This document shows positions 35,145 to 40,642 of a stretch of DNA of 58,761 bases, piece after piece (within the stretch, counting starts at the first letter, position 1; every line of letters starts with the position of its first letter). The notes beneath the pieces are model-generated. The model saw only the letters and a list, made by a program, of their open reading frames with translations. It was not told where the DNA came from and searched no databases. Both the position numbers and the translations under genes were made by a program. This DNA comes from Thermodesulfobacteriota bacterium (GTDB lineage: Bacteria; Desulfobacterota_D; UBA1144; Nemesobacterales; UBA2774): positions 1 to 58,761 of the forward strand of contig BQJP01000017.1 in the NCBI GenBank assembly GCA_021604765.1, read 5' to 3'.

Positions 35145-36473
35145 CTAAGAAACCAGTAAGACTCTTAAGTCCATAACGTTTGTATTAGTTGGCCCTGTGA
35201 TCAAAAGATCGCCAAGGGGCTTAAAAAAGTTATATGAGTTATTCTCACAGAGATGCTGATAAGCATTTAGACCTAACTTCCCTGCTCGGTTGATGGTTGT
35301 TCCGTCAGCAATAGCACCCGCAGCATCAGTAGGTCCGTCATTACCGTCTGTTCCTCCGCTTAAAACAATTGTGTTATCGAGCCCCTCAATATCAATTGCT
35401 GCAGCCAATACAAATTCCTGGTTCCTGCCTCCTAATCCCTTGCCTTCTATAGTCACTGTGGTCTCACCACCTGAAATAATGCAGGCGGGTTTTTTGACCG
35501 GATTACCGGAGGATTTTATTTCTTTAACAATAGCGGTGTGTACCTTTGCAACTTCTTCAGTCTCTCCGTGAATAAAAGTTGAGAGAACAAGGGTGTTATA
35601 TCCAAGCTCAGAAGCTTTCTCTTTTGCAGCACTTACTGCAATTATATTACTTCCTACAACTATGTTCTGTGTACTTTCAAAAACAGGGCTATCTGCCTTT
35701 GGAGTGTCTTCAATCTCACCATCACATCCTTTCTCTATATAATCTATGACTCTCTTTGGTACCCGCTCATCTAATTTGTATTTTTCTATAATATTTCTGC
35801 AATCATGAAAGGTGTGAGTATCGGGGACAGTTGGTCCTGAAGCAATTACATCAAGATCATCACCTATAACGTCTGATAAAATGAGTGAGATTAACCTAGA
35901 TGGATATACAAGCGCTGCAAGCCTCCCACCTTTAACCGCTGAGATTTGTTTTCTAATTGAATTGATCTCATGAATATCAGCACCACACTCTAGTAGAGCT
36001 TTTGTAACGGCTTGTTTATCTTCGAGCGTTAAATTTCCCGCTGGCGAAGGCAACAGTGCAGACCCTCCACCCGATATTAGACAGATAACAAGATCTTTCT
36101 CGCTGGTTTTCTTAAGCAGCTCTATTATTTCCTTACTTCCCGCAATACCTGCCTCGTCAGGTACTGGATGCGCTGCTTCGTTTGTCTTGATTTTGTTGAG
36201 AGGGGCGGTGTGCCCATACTTAACATTTACAATGCCGTGGGTTAATTTGTCTCCAAGTACCTCCTCGATCGCCTTAGCCATAGAAGCTGCAGCTTTTCCC
36301 ATTCCTACCACATATATGTTTTCGTAATCCCCAAGTTCATACTCCACATCTTGCAGCCTAAGTTTATTCCCATCTCGCTTAATATGATTTTTAACAGCAT
36401 TTATGGGATCGACAGCTTTAAGACCTGCTTCAAATATTTCTCTGGCGTCACTCCTAAGTTTCTCTGAGCTCAT
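35145..36473 (-). CDS. Glycerate 2-kinase (MOFRL family)
   Basis: A 442-aa glycerate kinase of the GckA/TtuD type, making 2-phosphoglycerate from D-glycerate in the glycerate or serine routes. Visible motifs are GMGKAAASMAKAIEEVLG, ISGGGSALLPSPAG and the C-terminal MOFRL block with GGRNQEFVLAAA, SGGTDGNDGPTDAAGA. The length is normal. The adjacent glycine cleavage genes are 9 kb away, and a physiological link is only suggestive. Confidence 0.92.
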   Translation of the reverse strand: MSSEKLRSDAREIFEAGLKAVDPINAVKNHIKRDGNKLRLQDVEYELGDYENIYVVGMGKAAASMAKAIEEVLGDKLTHGIVNVKYGHTAPLNKIKTNEAAHPVPDEAGIAGSKEIIELLKKTSEKDLVICLISGGGSALLPSPAGNLTLEDKQAVTKALLECGADIHEINSIRKQISAVKGGRLAALVYPSRLISLILSDVIGDDLDVIASGPTVPDTHTFHDCRNIIEKYKLDERVPKRVIDYIEKGCDGEIEDTPKADSPVFESTQNIVVGSNIIAVSAAKEKASELGYNTLVLSTFIHGETEEVAKVHTAIVKEIKSSGNPVKKPACIISGGETTVTIEGKGLGGRNQEFVLAAAIDIEGLDNTIVLSGGTDGNDGPTDAAGAIADGTTINRAGKLGLNAYQHLCENNSYNFFKPLGDLLITGPTNTNVMDLRVLLVS

Positions 36474-36588
36474 GTGTTCAAATTATAACGAGAGCGGCGG
36501 TATGTAACAAGAATTGAATTATAAAATTTTTAGCGTAGGTTAAATCTGGTAGACAATCATGCTAAATTAAAAAACCAGGAATATAGAA

Positions 36589-37227
36589 ATGAGAAATTTT
36601 CTAGTACTAAATATTTTGTTCTTATTTTTTATGGGCTTTCTTATAGTTTCCCACACATCTAACTCAGAGGATAAAATTACTTGTCCGGAGAAATGTGTCG
36701 AAAGTAGAAAGAACTGTAATCTTTCTTGCTCTCAAATAGTTGGTGGTGGCGCAAAGAGTAAGGAAAGAAGAGAGTGTGTGAAAAATTGCGGAGGGGAACA
36801 AGAATTATGCAATGAGAGATGTATAAATCCAACTCCTATGCCAACTCTCCAACCTGAGCGTTATCACGATAGGTCGTGCCCGAATGCTTGCGAACTTAAA
36901 GCGAAAGACTGTAATACGATATGTACCAAATATACCGGTGGGGGTGCTAAGAGTGATAAGAAGTCTACCTGTCGTCAAGAGTGTGGCGAGGGTTTAGAGA
37001 ACTGTAAGAATTGGTGTGTAAACCCAACTCCTCGACCTACTACAGCGCCTGATATTTATGATGGAGTTCGATGTGGGGATGTGTGCAAGAGCAAACTAAT
37101 GAACTGTGAAAAGACCTGCACTAAGTTTATTGGCGGAGGAGCTAAAAGTGGAAAGAGAACGGCGTGTATAAATGAATGTAAAGATTACAACGATGCTTGT
37201 ATAGATGACTGTTCTGAATCCAATTAA
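36589..37227 (+). CDS. Secreted protein with three eight-cysteine repeats
   Basis: A 212-aa exported protein. A signal peptide (hydrophobic LVLNILFLFFMGFLIVS, residues 4-20) precedes three modules at about 32-80, 93-141 and 154-205. Each has eight cysteines with identical spacing C-x3-C-x6-C-x3-C-x15-C-x3-C-x6-C-x3-C, and each x15 loop contains GGGAKS. Pro/Thr linkers (NPTPMPTLQP, NPTPRPTTAP) separate the modules. The spacing places four cysteines on one face of each of two helices, suggesting a disulfide-stapled helical hairpin or a metal-binding helix pair. I do not recognise the family. The protein stands alone, convergent with the DUF1622 gene. Confidence 0.75.
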   Translation: MRNFLVLNILFLFFMGFLIVSHTSNSEDKITCPEKCVESRKNCNLSCSQIVGGGAKSKERRECVKNCGGEQELCNERCINPTPMPTLQPERYHDRSCPNACELKAKDCNTICTKYTGGGAKSDKKSTCRQECGEGLENCKNWCVNPTPRPTTAPDIYDGVRCGDVCKSKLMNCEKTCTKFIGGGAKSGKRTACINECKDYNDACIDDCSESN

Positions 37228-38482: not shown

Positions 38483-40471
38483 CTATATTAACTCCACGTC
38501 TGCCATAATCTCGACTAATGAGAATTTCTTATGCTTCAGCGCTTTTCTAAGTGCCGGTCCTAATTCTTTCTTACTTGTAACCCTAATCCCTAGTCCCCCA
38601 CAGGAGGTTACAAAATCAGCGAAGTTTGGATTGTGAAGTGATGTCTGCCAAACTTCCCAGTTACCTGCCTTCTGTTCTTTACTAATTTTTCCAAGCTCTT
38701 TGTTGTGAAGGAGCACATGGGTGATGTTCATTCCGTACTTGACTGCTGTTGTGACATCTGCTAAATATTGACCAAATCCACCGTCTCCTGATACTGAAAC
38801 CACTTTCCGCCCCTTAAACTGAGGGTCGTCTTCCTGAGTTGCCGACCATGCCCCTAGAGCCGCCGGAAGTGAAAAACCAATAGAGCCAAGATACCCTGAC
38901 ATTAGTATGGCTTGGTTTCTGCATTCAAAGTATCTACCAAAAGAGTATGTATTGTTTCCAACATCAACAGCTATGATAGTGTCTTTAGAGACCAGCTTTG
39001 ATAGTTCTTCAAAAATATATGCAGAGTTTAATCCTAAACCCCTGTCGTCTTTTCTCCTGCTTTTCTTCTCATCTCTCCATATTGTCCAGCGTTTTGCTAT
39101 CTCTTTTCTTCTGTCTTTTGATTTTGCTTTACCCCTCACGGCTTTTGTTATGAGGTCCGCTGTAATTCCAATCTCTCCCCAAACAGGGACAGTAACCGAA
39201 TGAAACTTTGCAAGAGCCATATTGTCATAATCAACATGGATAATCGGTTTTTTAGAAGATATTCCAGTGTGATTACTAAAGCTTGCGCCAAAAACTAGAA
39301 GCAAGTCCGACTCATTCATAAACCAGCTAGCTATTGGAGTTCCGCTTCTCCCCAGAACACCACACCCAAGCGGATGATCGTCAGATATTAAACCCTTTCC
39401 TTTAAATGTAGTGAATACAGGGCATTTCAACATCTCGGCTAGCTTAATAATTGAATCCATATTAAAACGAGCGCCATGACCGACAATAATAGAAGGTCGT
39501 TCAGCATTTTTTAAAAGCTTAATGGCTTGATCAAGAGTTTCTTTCGGAGGACTGATTGTAAGTGGTGTCACTCTACCTTTCGGACTACCTGCTTTTGCTT
39601 TATCTGGCGCAGGAAGTGTTTGCACTTCATCAGGGAATACGAGATGAGATACTCCACGGTTTAAGATAGCGCTCTTTAGAGCTAAATTTATAAGTTCTGC
39701 ATGCTTACTAGAGTTAAGAACTGTTTGAGACCACTGTGCTACTTTTCCAAACGCAGCTTGCAAGTCTACCTCTTGAAAAGCTCCTGGTCCAAGCACCTGA
39801 GTATCAACCTGGCCGCTTAAGGCTAGCACAGGGCTTCTATCGACGTTTGCGTCCCAGAGGCCGGTTAATAGGTTGGTAGAACCCGGTCCTGCAATCCCGA
39901 GACACGCTGCGGGTCTGCCAGTGAGTTTCCCGTATGCGGAGCATGCGAATGCGGCGGCTCCTTCATGGCGTATACCGTAATAAGATAAATTCCCGGCTTC
40001 CTCCTGAATCCTGAGCGCATCTGCAAGACCCAAGTTGGAATGTCCTACCATTCCGAAGACTTGCCTGACTCCCCAATTGACCATGGTCTCAGCCATGATA
40101 TCAGTTACTGTGGCCTTATGTGCCCCTTCGTCTTCAAGGGCAACGTATATACCGTCGTCGCGTTCTTCAATTTCATATGTTGGCACGCCGTCATCAAATC
40201 CCCCAGGGGATTCACCGGTAATGGGGTTAAAGTCCCATCCGTGCCAGGGGCATCTTAAAAAGCCATTCTCTATTGAACCCTCACCCAAGGGGCCGCCTTG
40301 ATGAGGACACTTATTGTTCAAGGCACCGTACTCATTCTTGAAGCGGCTTAAGCATAAAGTGAGATTTCTACAAGTTCTGGTTGTAACTCTTCCTTCAGGA
40401 AGCTCTCCGTGTTCTAAGACTTTGTACCAGGATTTATGTACTTTGGATCTTTTTGAAGTTGTGGTCGCCAT
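38483..40471 (-). CDS. Rieske 2Fe-2S domain fused to a TPP-dependent enzyme
   Basis: A 662-aa fusion. Residues about 10-112 are a Rieske ferredoxin domain with C55-x-H57 (CPHQGG) and C74-x2-H77 (CPWHGWDF). Residues about 118-660 are a full pyruvate-oxidase/acetolactate-synthase-type enzyme: catalytic Glu170 in GIRHEGAAAF, a central domain, and GDGGFGQYLADVTTA for TPP-metal binding. The start ATG 40471 follows AGGAGG by eight bases. Such an enzyme decarboxylates 2-oxo acids; the Rieske cluster could carry the resulting electrons, replacing the usual FAD/quinone route. Product and acceptor are unknown. The gene leads an operon with DUF5996 and DUF1622. Confidence 0.85.
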   Translation of the reverse strand: MATTTSKRSKVHKSWYKVLEHGELPEGRVTTRTCRNLTLCLSRFKNEYGALNNKCPHQGGPLGEGSIENGFLRCPWHGWDFNPITGESPGGFDDGVPTYEIEERDDGIYVALEDEGAHKATVTDIMAETMVNWGVRQVFGMVGHSNLGLADALRIQEEAGNLSYYGIRHEGAAAFACSAYGKLTGRPAACLGIAGPGSTNLLTGLWDANVDRSPVLALSGQVDTQVLGPGAFQEVDLQAAFGKVAQWSQTVLNSSKHAELINLALKSAILNRGVSHLVFPDEVQTLPAPDKAKAGSPKGRVTPLTISPPKETLDQAIKLLKNAERPSIIVGHGARFNMDSIIKLAEMLKCPVFTTFKGKGLISDDHPLGCGVLGRSGTPIASWFMNESDLLLVFGASFSNHTGISSKKPIIHVDYDNMALAKFHSVTVPVWGEIGITADLITKAVRGKAKSKDRRKEIAKRWTIWRDEKKSRRKDDRGLGLNSAYIFEELSKLVSKDTIIAVDVGNNTYSFGRYFECRNQAILMSGYLGSIGFSLPAALGAWSATQEDDPQFKGRKVVSVSGDGGFGQYLADVTTAVKYGMNITHVLLHNKELGKISKEQKAGNWEVWQTSLHNPNFADFVTSCGGLGIRVTSKKELGPALRKALKHKKFSLVEIMADVELI

Positions 40472-40642
40472 TGAGCAATCCTCCTGACTCTCTTTATAAT
40501 ACAAATTTAGAGAAATATCAAAGACATTTCTTTGGTAATATAGGCCCGCACTTTCAGAATTAGATAGTTTTAATCACTAGAAAGTTGCTTAGTTGAAATA
40601 AATTTTGTATAAATGGGGCTAGGTCTCTGGGATTCTTGAATA

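What the first reader, a model, noticed from the sequence alone, without database searches (positions are those of the whole stretch)
36589..37227. Secreted triple module with 24 perfectly spaced cysteines
Seen: three repeats, each C-x3-C-x6-C-x3-C-x15-C-x3-C-x6-C-x3-C with GGGAKS in the x15 loop. Helical spacing (i, i+4, i+11, i+15) would put cysteines on one face of two helices, so four disulfides could staple a hairpin. The pattern differs from DUF326-type copper proteins (C-x2-C spacing). Proposed roles: extracellular metal binding, toxin-like or structural.
Basis: partly seen in the sequence, partly recalled or inferred. Interest (0 to 1): 0.75.

Follow-up and report, generated by a model that had tools for sequence, protein, structure and literature searches.

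The report
Exported protein of disulfide-stapled helical hairpins
A bacterial gene encodes a small exported protein made of three look-alike modules whose evenly placed cysteines probably lock pairs of helices together like rungs of a ladder; it fits no named protein family that we searched, and its job is unknown.

Summary
ORF 36589-37227 (+, 212 aa) has an export-type N-terminus and three modules C-x3-C-x6-C-x3-C-x15-C-x3-C-x6-C-x3-C, with no other cysteine. It is single-copy, with orthologs in 11 of 57 genomes of its class, all in one family (Candidatus Dadabacteria by record titles). All 24 Cys are invariant in the 10 intact orthologs (nine are 41-61% identical to the window protein) while Cys codons drift. 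Four family genomes lack it at an intact locus. Pfam, NCBIfam and PDB give nothing significant. AlphaFold2 (modest confidence) predicts helix pairs. In an ideal-helix model the observed spacing is the best of 91 equal-span spacings for four in-register disulfides (C1-C8, C2-C7, C3-C6, C4-C5). The genome encodes a VKOR-thioredoxin fusion. Conclusion: exported, three disulfide-stapled hairpins on Pro/Thr linkers, probably an envelope or extracellular scaffold; the role is inference. It works like alpha-hairpinins, small Tims and worm neurotoxin B-IV, but membership is shown for none. Seven small exported proteins in six other genomes carry single modules of the same spacing without detectable sequence relationship, and aphid BCR3 peptides share its outer six cysteines.

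The parts
36589..37227 (+). ORF, 212 aa: export signal plus three 8-Cys modules
   Evidence: orthologs
36577..36580 (+). AGGA, Shine-Dalgarno-like, 8 nt before the ATG
   Evidence: sequence
36589..36666 (+). N-terminal hydrophobic export signal (residues 1-26, end approximate); no lipobox, no twin arginine
   Evidence: sequence by eye; hydropathy maximum 3.11; same in orthologs. No signal-peptide predictor was run
36682..36822 (+). module 1 (residues 32-78)
36823..36876 (+). linker 1, Pro/Thr-rich, conserved PTP.PT..P..Y.D
36877..37017 (+). module 2 (residues 97-143)
37018..37071 (+). linker 2, Pro/Thr-rich, less conserved
37072..37212 (+). module 3 (residues 162-208)
36474..36588 (.). 115-bp intergenic region shared with the divergent glycerate kinase-like gene; promoter scan at chance level
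35145..36473 (-). constant neighbour (DUF4147 + MOFRL, glycerate kinase-like); not thought to be a functional partner, as it stays where the Cys gene is missing

Best explanation
The protein is exported through Sec, loses its signal peptide, and is oxidised outside the cytoplasm by the cell's VKOR-thioredoxin fusion. Each 47-residue module folds as two antiparallel alpha-helices joined by a glycine-rich loop (GGGAKS), locked by four disulfides in ladder order C1-C8, C2-C7, C3-C6, C4-C5. The three hairpins sit like rigid beads on Pro/Thr-rich linkers. The most likely role is a protease- and stress-resistant structural or binding scaffold in the cell envelope or outside the cell, with the exposed loops and linker 1 as likely contact sites. 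Shown: sequence pattern, its conservation, an export-type N-terminus, presence of a VKOR-Trx gene. Computed: helix pairs, geometric fit of the ladder. Inferred: that the disulfides form, their pairing, and the role (role alone about 0.35; fold and disulfides about 0.8).
For: All 24 Cys invariant in 10 of 10 intact orthologs with an even number per module and no spare Cys in the mature part. The palindromic spacing makes all four pair sums equal (C1+C8 = C2+C7 = C3+C6 = C4+C5), the register of an antiparallel hairpin. In an ideal two-helix model the observed spacing gives residual 0.00 A with axes about 8-9 A apart and ranks 1 of 91 spacings of span 15 (medians 2.3-4.2 A); the best of the other pairings among all 24 permutations gives 1.70 A or more; it holds for five parameter sets, and over 161 spacings of spans 8-19 it ties with one other at 0.00. 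AlphaFold2: six helices holding 24 of 24 Cys (single sequence) or 23 of 24 (7 sequences). Mature part has only 13-17% large hydrophobics, so a hydrophobic core alone is unlikely. VKOR in 13 of 16 family genomes including the own; own copy aligns over residues 8-283 to the solved VKOR/thioredoxin fusion 3kp9, E 1.9e-44. Independent small exported proteins use the same spacing.
Against: Model confidence is modest (mean pLDDT 65.7 and 65.5, pTM 0.27), and no coordinates were available to measure Cys distances. The geometric fit has 6 free parameters for 4 distances and several other spacings come within 0.1-0.2 A, so it shows fit, not proof. No partner gene, no expression data, no functional assay. 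Four same-family genomes lack the gene with the locus intact, so the role is not essential. VKOR is found in carriers and non-carriers alike, so it does not co-vary.
Confidence: 0.62

Rival explanations
1. Thiolate metal binder or store: the 24 thiols stay reduced and bind Cu(I) or Zn(II) between the helices, as in Csp copper-storage proteins or reduced small Tims.
For: Cys on one face of paired helices is also what a Cys-lined bundle needs (passages of PMC12510493); reduced small Tims with twin CX3C bind Zn (passages of PMC3759932).
Against: No match to a metal-binding family; neighbours are not metal genes; the N-terminus looks Sec-type whereas the exported Csp proteins described carry Tat signals; the mature part has few His or Met (0-3 His, 0-4 Met); a VKOR-Trx oxidase is present; the exact palindromic register is not needed for thiolate clusters.
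Confidence: 0.15
2. Precursor of secreted defence or inhibitor peptides: the three modules are released at the linkers and act as antimicrobial or protease-inhibiting hairpins, as plant alpha-hairpinin cassettes do.
For: Same precursor layout (signal, several hairpin modules, linkers) and the same inner CX3C-Xn-CX3C motif as alpha-hairpinins; in buckwheat trypsin inhibitors the reactive Arg lies between the two CXXXC motifs (passages of PMC7191063); GGGAKS offers a Lys there.
Against: The loop Lys is lost in all modules of genus g2; net charge ranges from -16 to +7, not the cationic pattern; no immunity-like gene keeps company; modules differ from one another (0.11-0.14 identity between positions against 0.27-0.44 within), unlike a cassette of equivalent peptides.
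Confidence: 0.12
3. Small-Tim-like periplasmic chaperone: hairpins assemble into a ring that shields exported proteins.
For: The module profile's best PDB match is a Tim10/DDP protein (7w5z_T1, E 0.16, profile positions 10-40).
Against: E-value not significant; low hydrophobic content; three tethered modules; no client or translocase gene nearby.
Confidence: 0.05
4. Decaying or meaningless ORF.
For: One of 11 copies is disrupted (G014 = L018) and at least four family genomes lack the gene.
Against: Ten intact copies keep every Cys while codons and other residues drift; position is kept across genera.
Confidence: 0.02

Closest known systems
Neurotoxin B-IV of the ribbon worm Cerebratulus lacteus (PDB 1vib)
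   Same: Helical hairpin cross-linked by four disulfides (passages of PMC6410017). In the stretch that one search prints, its second arm has the identical CX3CX6CX3C and its first arm shows C-x3-C-x6-C at chain residues 12, 16, 23; pair sums 12+52, 16+48, 23+41 are equal, as in our module (its actual pairing was not read).
   Different: Animal toxin of 55 residues, single hairpin; sequence match E 9.6, not significant; loop without GGG.
Plant alpha-hairpinins
   Same: CX3C-Xn-CX3C helix-loop-helix with nested disulfides (EcAMP1: Cys7-Cys29, Cys11-Cys25), multi-module secreted precursors; a three-rung 6C form exists.
   Different: Two or three rungs, CX3CX3C in the 6C form; plant; cleaved to single peptides; only one ortholog gave a Pfam Antimicrobial21 hit, E 4.6.
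Mitochondrial small Tim proteins (twin CX3C)
   Same: Helix-loop-helix held by disulfides between CX3C motifs; best but non-significant PDB match of the module profile.
   Different: Two rungs, intermembrane space, imported without export signal, hexameric chaperones.
Aphid bacteriocyte peptides BCR3
   Same: Motif CX3CX6CX21-25CX6CX3C (Table 3 of PMC9604261, passage); our module without its inner pair reads CX3CX6CX23CX6CX3C.
   Different: Six Cys, insect peptides; bonding listed there as unknown; no sequence comparison made.
Csp copper-storage proteins (DUF326)
   Same: Helices with Cys on one face.
   Different: Four-helix bundle, Tat export, Cu(I) thiolates; no Pfam hit here.
Single-module exported proteins of other bacteria found here (L239-L245)
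   Same: Identical eight-Cys spacing with Cys-free spacers and an export-type N-terminus.
   Different: One module each, mostly lipoprotein-like; no sequence similarity above Cys-preserving shuffles; no Pfam or NCBIfam match over cut-off in the six tested.

Membership tests
alpha-hairpinins | core motif CX3C-X4-20-CX3C (PMC11591084) | tested here: met
   inner four Cys of each module: CX3C-X15-CX3C
alpha-hairpinins | 4C or 6C core without three or more further cysteines (exclusion criterion 3 in the passage, read in part) | tested here: not met
   each module has four further Cys at x6 spacing
alpha-hairpinins | antimicrobial or inhibitory peptide | not testable with these tools
   needs an assay
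small Tim (Tim10/DDP) | family profile match | tested here: not met
   no Pfam match; PDB-sequence match only at E 0.16
nemertean B-neurotoxins | four-disulfide helical hairpin | tested here: inconclusive
   spacing agrees where visible and geometry fits, but no structure or disulfide map
nemertean B-neurotoxins | sequence homology | tested here: not met
   E 9.6
Csp / DUF326 | DUF326 profile match | tested here: not met
   only an unrelated E 0.97 hit in Pfam
Csp / DUF326 | Tat signal in exported members | tested here: not met
   no twin arginine in the N-termini listed (by eye)
Csp / DUF326 | Cu(I) binding | not testable with these tools
   needs metal analysis
CHCH (twin CX9C) | CX9C motifs (recalled) | tested here: not met
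   spacing is CX3C and CX6C; no Pfam match
aphid BCR3 | CX3CX6CX21-25CX6CX3C | tested here: met
   outer six Cys of each 47-residue module; two additional Cys inside; homology not tested

The most novel reading that the evidence does not exclude
There is an unrecognised, sequence-independent class of bacterial exported modules, four-rung disulfide-ladder hairpins written in a simple cysteine code (C3C6C3C-loop-C3C6C3C), reached repeatedly by bacteria, worms and insects because this spacing is close to the geometric ideal for stapling two antiparallel helices. The Dadabacterial protein is its tandem form; usual homology searches miss the class because only the cysteines are shared.
Probability: 0.4. 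Interest if true: 0.75.

Novelty: new variant of a known kind. Interest (0 to 1): 0.58.

Why it matters
If the fold is right, bacteria make and export a four-disulfide version of a scaffold discussed so far in plant defence peptides, mitochondrial Tims and worm venom, in tandem form and in single-module lipoprotein-like form in other lineages. A spacing-only rule would let such proteins be found across genomes where sequence search fails. It also yields a direct prediction for aphid BCR3 peptides, whose bonding pattern is listed as unknown: 1-6, 2-5, 3-4. The modules could be hyperstable scaffolds for engineering.

Tried and rejected
Homology routes that gave nothing: Pfam (one E 0.97 hit; three sub-threshold names over 10 orthologs, HOXB-AS3, Bcl-2_BAD E 0.022, Antimicrobial21 E 4.6), NCBIfam, PDB sequences with the protein and with the full-length profile A1, phages and plasmids by tblastn at E up to 1, viral contigs by A1 (11 candidate stretches, no relative), genome contigs with the single protein (none; with A1, 7 loci). 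Fold searches: Foldseek on PDB best E 1.7 and on BFVD best E 0.88; VIA-align best Z 5.7 over 55 residues, below what that tool calls informative for helical models. These absences do not show a new fold.

Profile search of the phylum of G058: 1 of 101 genomes, E 0.01 with three stops inside; rejected. Phylum of G057 held 1 genome, empty. Module profile in 386 relatives: 12 of 386, of which 11 are the orthologs and one (G319, E 0.005, partial, stop inside) was rejected as noise.

Pattern search in the 386 relatives: 43 genomes, 11 being the orthologs. Of the other 32, I fetched or held at least one listed place for all but G343 (a TGT repeat by its listed DNA); further places of some genomes were not fetched and the list was truncated by the tool. 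Strict modules (no Cys in any spacer) were found in 6 genomes, 7 proteins; the rest were simple repeats or other Cys-rich proteins.

Considered and dropped: Walker-A reading of GGGAKS (wrong spacing by eye); link with DsbB (5 of 16 family genomes, three of them non-carriers); habitat link with marine streamlining (passages of PMC8115339, do not mention such proteins; the relatives are unnamed). Sigma-70-like sites and terminators near the gene are at chance level.

Full report
Observation. The ORF at 36589-37227 (+) encodes 212 aa with an ATG, an AGGA eight bases upstream, a hydrophobic N-terminus and three 47-residue modules with exactly the stated spacing. The 24 module cysteines are the only ones in the protein. 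An 8-Cys DNA pattern hits the own genome five times, all in this gene, reversed control 0.

Distribution. One copy in the own genome. Orthologs in 11 of 60 relatives and 11 of 57 genomes of the class, all within one family of 16 genomes. Of the seven named records that hold it, five are titled Candidatus Dadabacteria, one Deltaproteobacteria, one Thermodesulfobacteriales; the placement in Dadabacteria is inferred from these titles. No relatives in phages, plasmids or viral contigs.

Conservation. In 10 intact orthologs (nine of them 41-61% identical to the window protein) all 24 Cys columns are invariant; of 180 other gapless columns 26 are. 23 of 24 Cys codon columns hold both TGT and TGC, with 11.2 synonymous differences per pair of sequences on average. 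One ortholog (L008) has an extra Cys in its signal region. The x15 loop is 12 residues in module 3 of L010. GGG in the loop is 29-30 of 30 modules, but the Lys of GGGAKS is lost in all nine modules of the three intact genus-g2 copies. Outside Cys, module arms are 0.44, 0.33 and 0.27 identical within positions 1, 2 and 3, but 0.11-0.14 between positions: the three modules are old and distinct. The eleventh copy (G014 = L018) has an in-frame TGA and a lost Cys.

Locus. The gene is divergent from a glycerate kinase-like gene (DUF4147 + MOFRL) in every copy checked with enough flank; the other side varies (DUF1622, DUF5996, Rieske-TPP enzyme, or directly an NTPase_1 gene). In G001, G005, G006 and G008 the kinase and the other neighbours are present and contiguous but the Cys gene is missing; G012 (59% complete) was not resolved. 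The gene is thus dispensable and has no constant partner except a metabolic neighbour.

Export and oxidation. N-termini are Sec-like by eye, with no lipobox and no twin arginine; no predictor was run. VKOR is found in 13 of 16 family genomes and the own copy is a full VKOR-thioredoxin fusion (3kp9, E 1.9e-44, residues 8-283; CPHC motif). Carriers and non-carriers both have it, so this shows capability, not linkage.

Fold. AlphaFold2 gives a signal helix and six helices; mean pLDDT 65.7 (single sequence) and 65.5 (seven sequences), pTM 0.27; 24 of 24 and 23 of 24 module Cys lie in helices. Relative order of the hairpins is not determined. Fold searches gave nothing significant.

Geometry. Arm positions 0, 4, 11, 15 lie within 60 degrees of one helix face, and the palindrome makes all four nested pairs in register. 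In a rigid ideal-helix model with target CB-CB 3.8 A, the observed pairing fits at 0.00 A, other pairings at 1.70 A or more, and the spacing ranks first of 91 with equal span for minimum axis distances 7, 8, 8.5 and 9 A. Over 161 spacings of spans 8-19 it ties with 0-7-11-18 at 0.00, with others at 0.05-0.2 A. This is a fit with free parameters, so it shows that the ladder is possible and near-ideal, not that it forms.

Recurrence. A spacing-only search in 386 relatives hit 43 genomes: the 11 orthologs and 32 others. After requiring an open frame with Cys-free spacers, seven proteins in six of those 32 genomes remain: L239 (G028, same order), L240 (G336), L241 (G191), L242 and L243 (both G184), L244 (G402), L245 (G472). 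All seven have a hydrophobic N-terminus; L240, L243, L244 and L245 match a lipobox expression, L239 and L241 have Cys after a hydrophobic stretch, L242 looks like a cleaved signal (and by eye). Loops are 8-16 residues. Their scores against the module profile do not exceed Cys-preserving shuffles (24 to 140 of 300 shuffles reach them, against 0 of 300 for the window module), so common origin is neither shown nor excluded. Six of them were scanned in Pfam and NCBIfam without a match over a cut-off. Whether this spacing is commoner than others was not tested.

Comparison with the known. The module profile's best PDB matches are a Tim10/DDP protein (E 0.16) and, at E 9.6, worm neurotoxin B-IV, whose printed stretch shows the same second arm and three of the first-arm Cys in the same register; B-IV is a helical hairpin with four disulfides (passages of PMC6410017). 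Alpha-hairpinins share the inner motif, nested pairing and multi-module precursors (passages of PMC11591084 and PMC7191063). Aphid BCR3 has CX3CX6CX21-25CX6CX3C with bonding unknown (one passage of PMC9604261). Csp proteins use Cys-lined four-helix bundles and Tat export (passages of PMC12510493). Searches of the paper library for the motif string and for Dadabacteria with cysteine-rich and secreted (0 papers) found no description of this protein; one search found 3 papers, of which I read one passage each of two, and none relevant in its listing. The library holds open-licence papers only.

Verdict. A real, conserved, exported three-hairpin protein whose cysteines most likely form four-rung disulfide ladders. 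What it binds or supports is unknown; a structural or binding scaffold is my best guess. It works like several known disulfide hairpins but is shown to be a member of none.

Noticed in passing
   Followed up: partly
PMC9604261, Table 3: Aphid BCR3 peptides have CX3CX6CX21-25CX6CX3C with unknown bonding; the hairpin model predicts 1-6, 2-5, 3-4.
   Followed up: no
window 38483-40504 (-): Thiamine-diphosphate enzyme with an N-terminal Rieske [2Fe-2S] domain in one 673-aa protein, conserved in the genus at 90% identity or more.
   Followed up: no
L018 / G014:C87:8206-8832: Disrupted ortholog: in-frame TGA and a Cys-to-Tyr change; could be decay or an assembly error.
   Followed up: no
L189, L190, L191, L193 (G001, G005, G006, G008): Neighbour genes contiguous but the Cys-rich gene missing; three of these genomes are from the own genus and are smaller (1.7-2.1 Mb) than the carriers of that genus (2.2-3.4 Mb).
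   Followed up: partly
BFVD A0A1V0SKZ5 (Klosneuvirus): A giant-virus protein aligns over 54 columns at rmsd 2.9 and 24% identity, E 5.3; might be another Cys hairpin, not examined.
   Followed up: no
G283, G419 (L251-L257): Very Cys-rich proteins (up to 103 Cys in the fetched open frame) with C-x3-C-x6-C-x3-C units but extra Cys in the spacers; a different kind of repeat.
   Followed up: no
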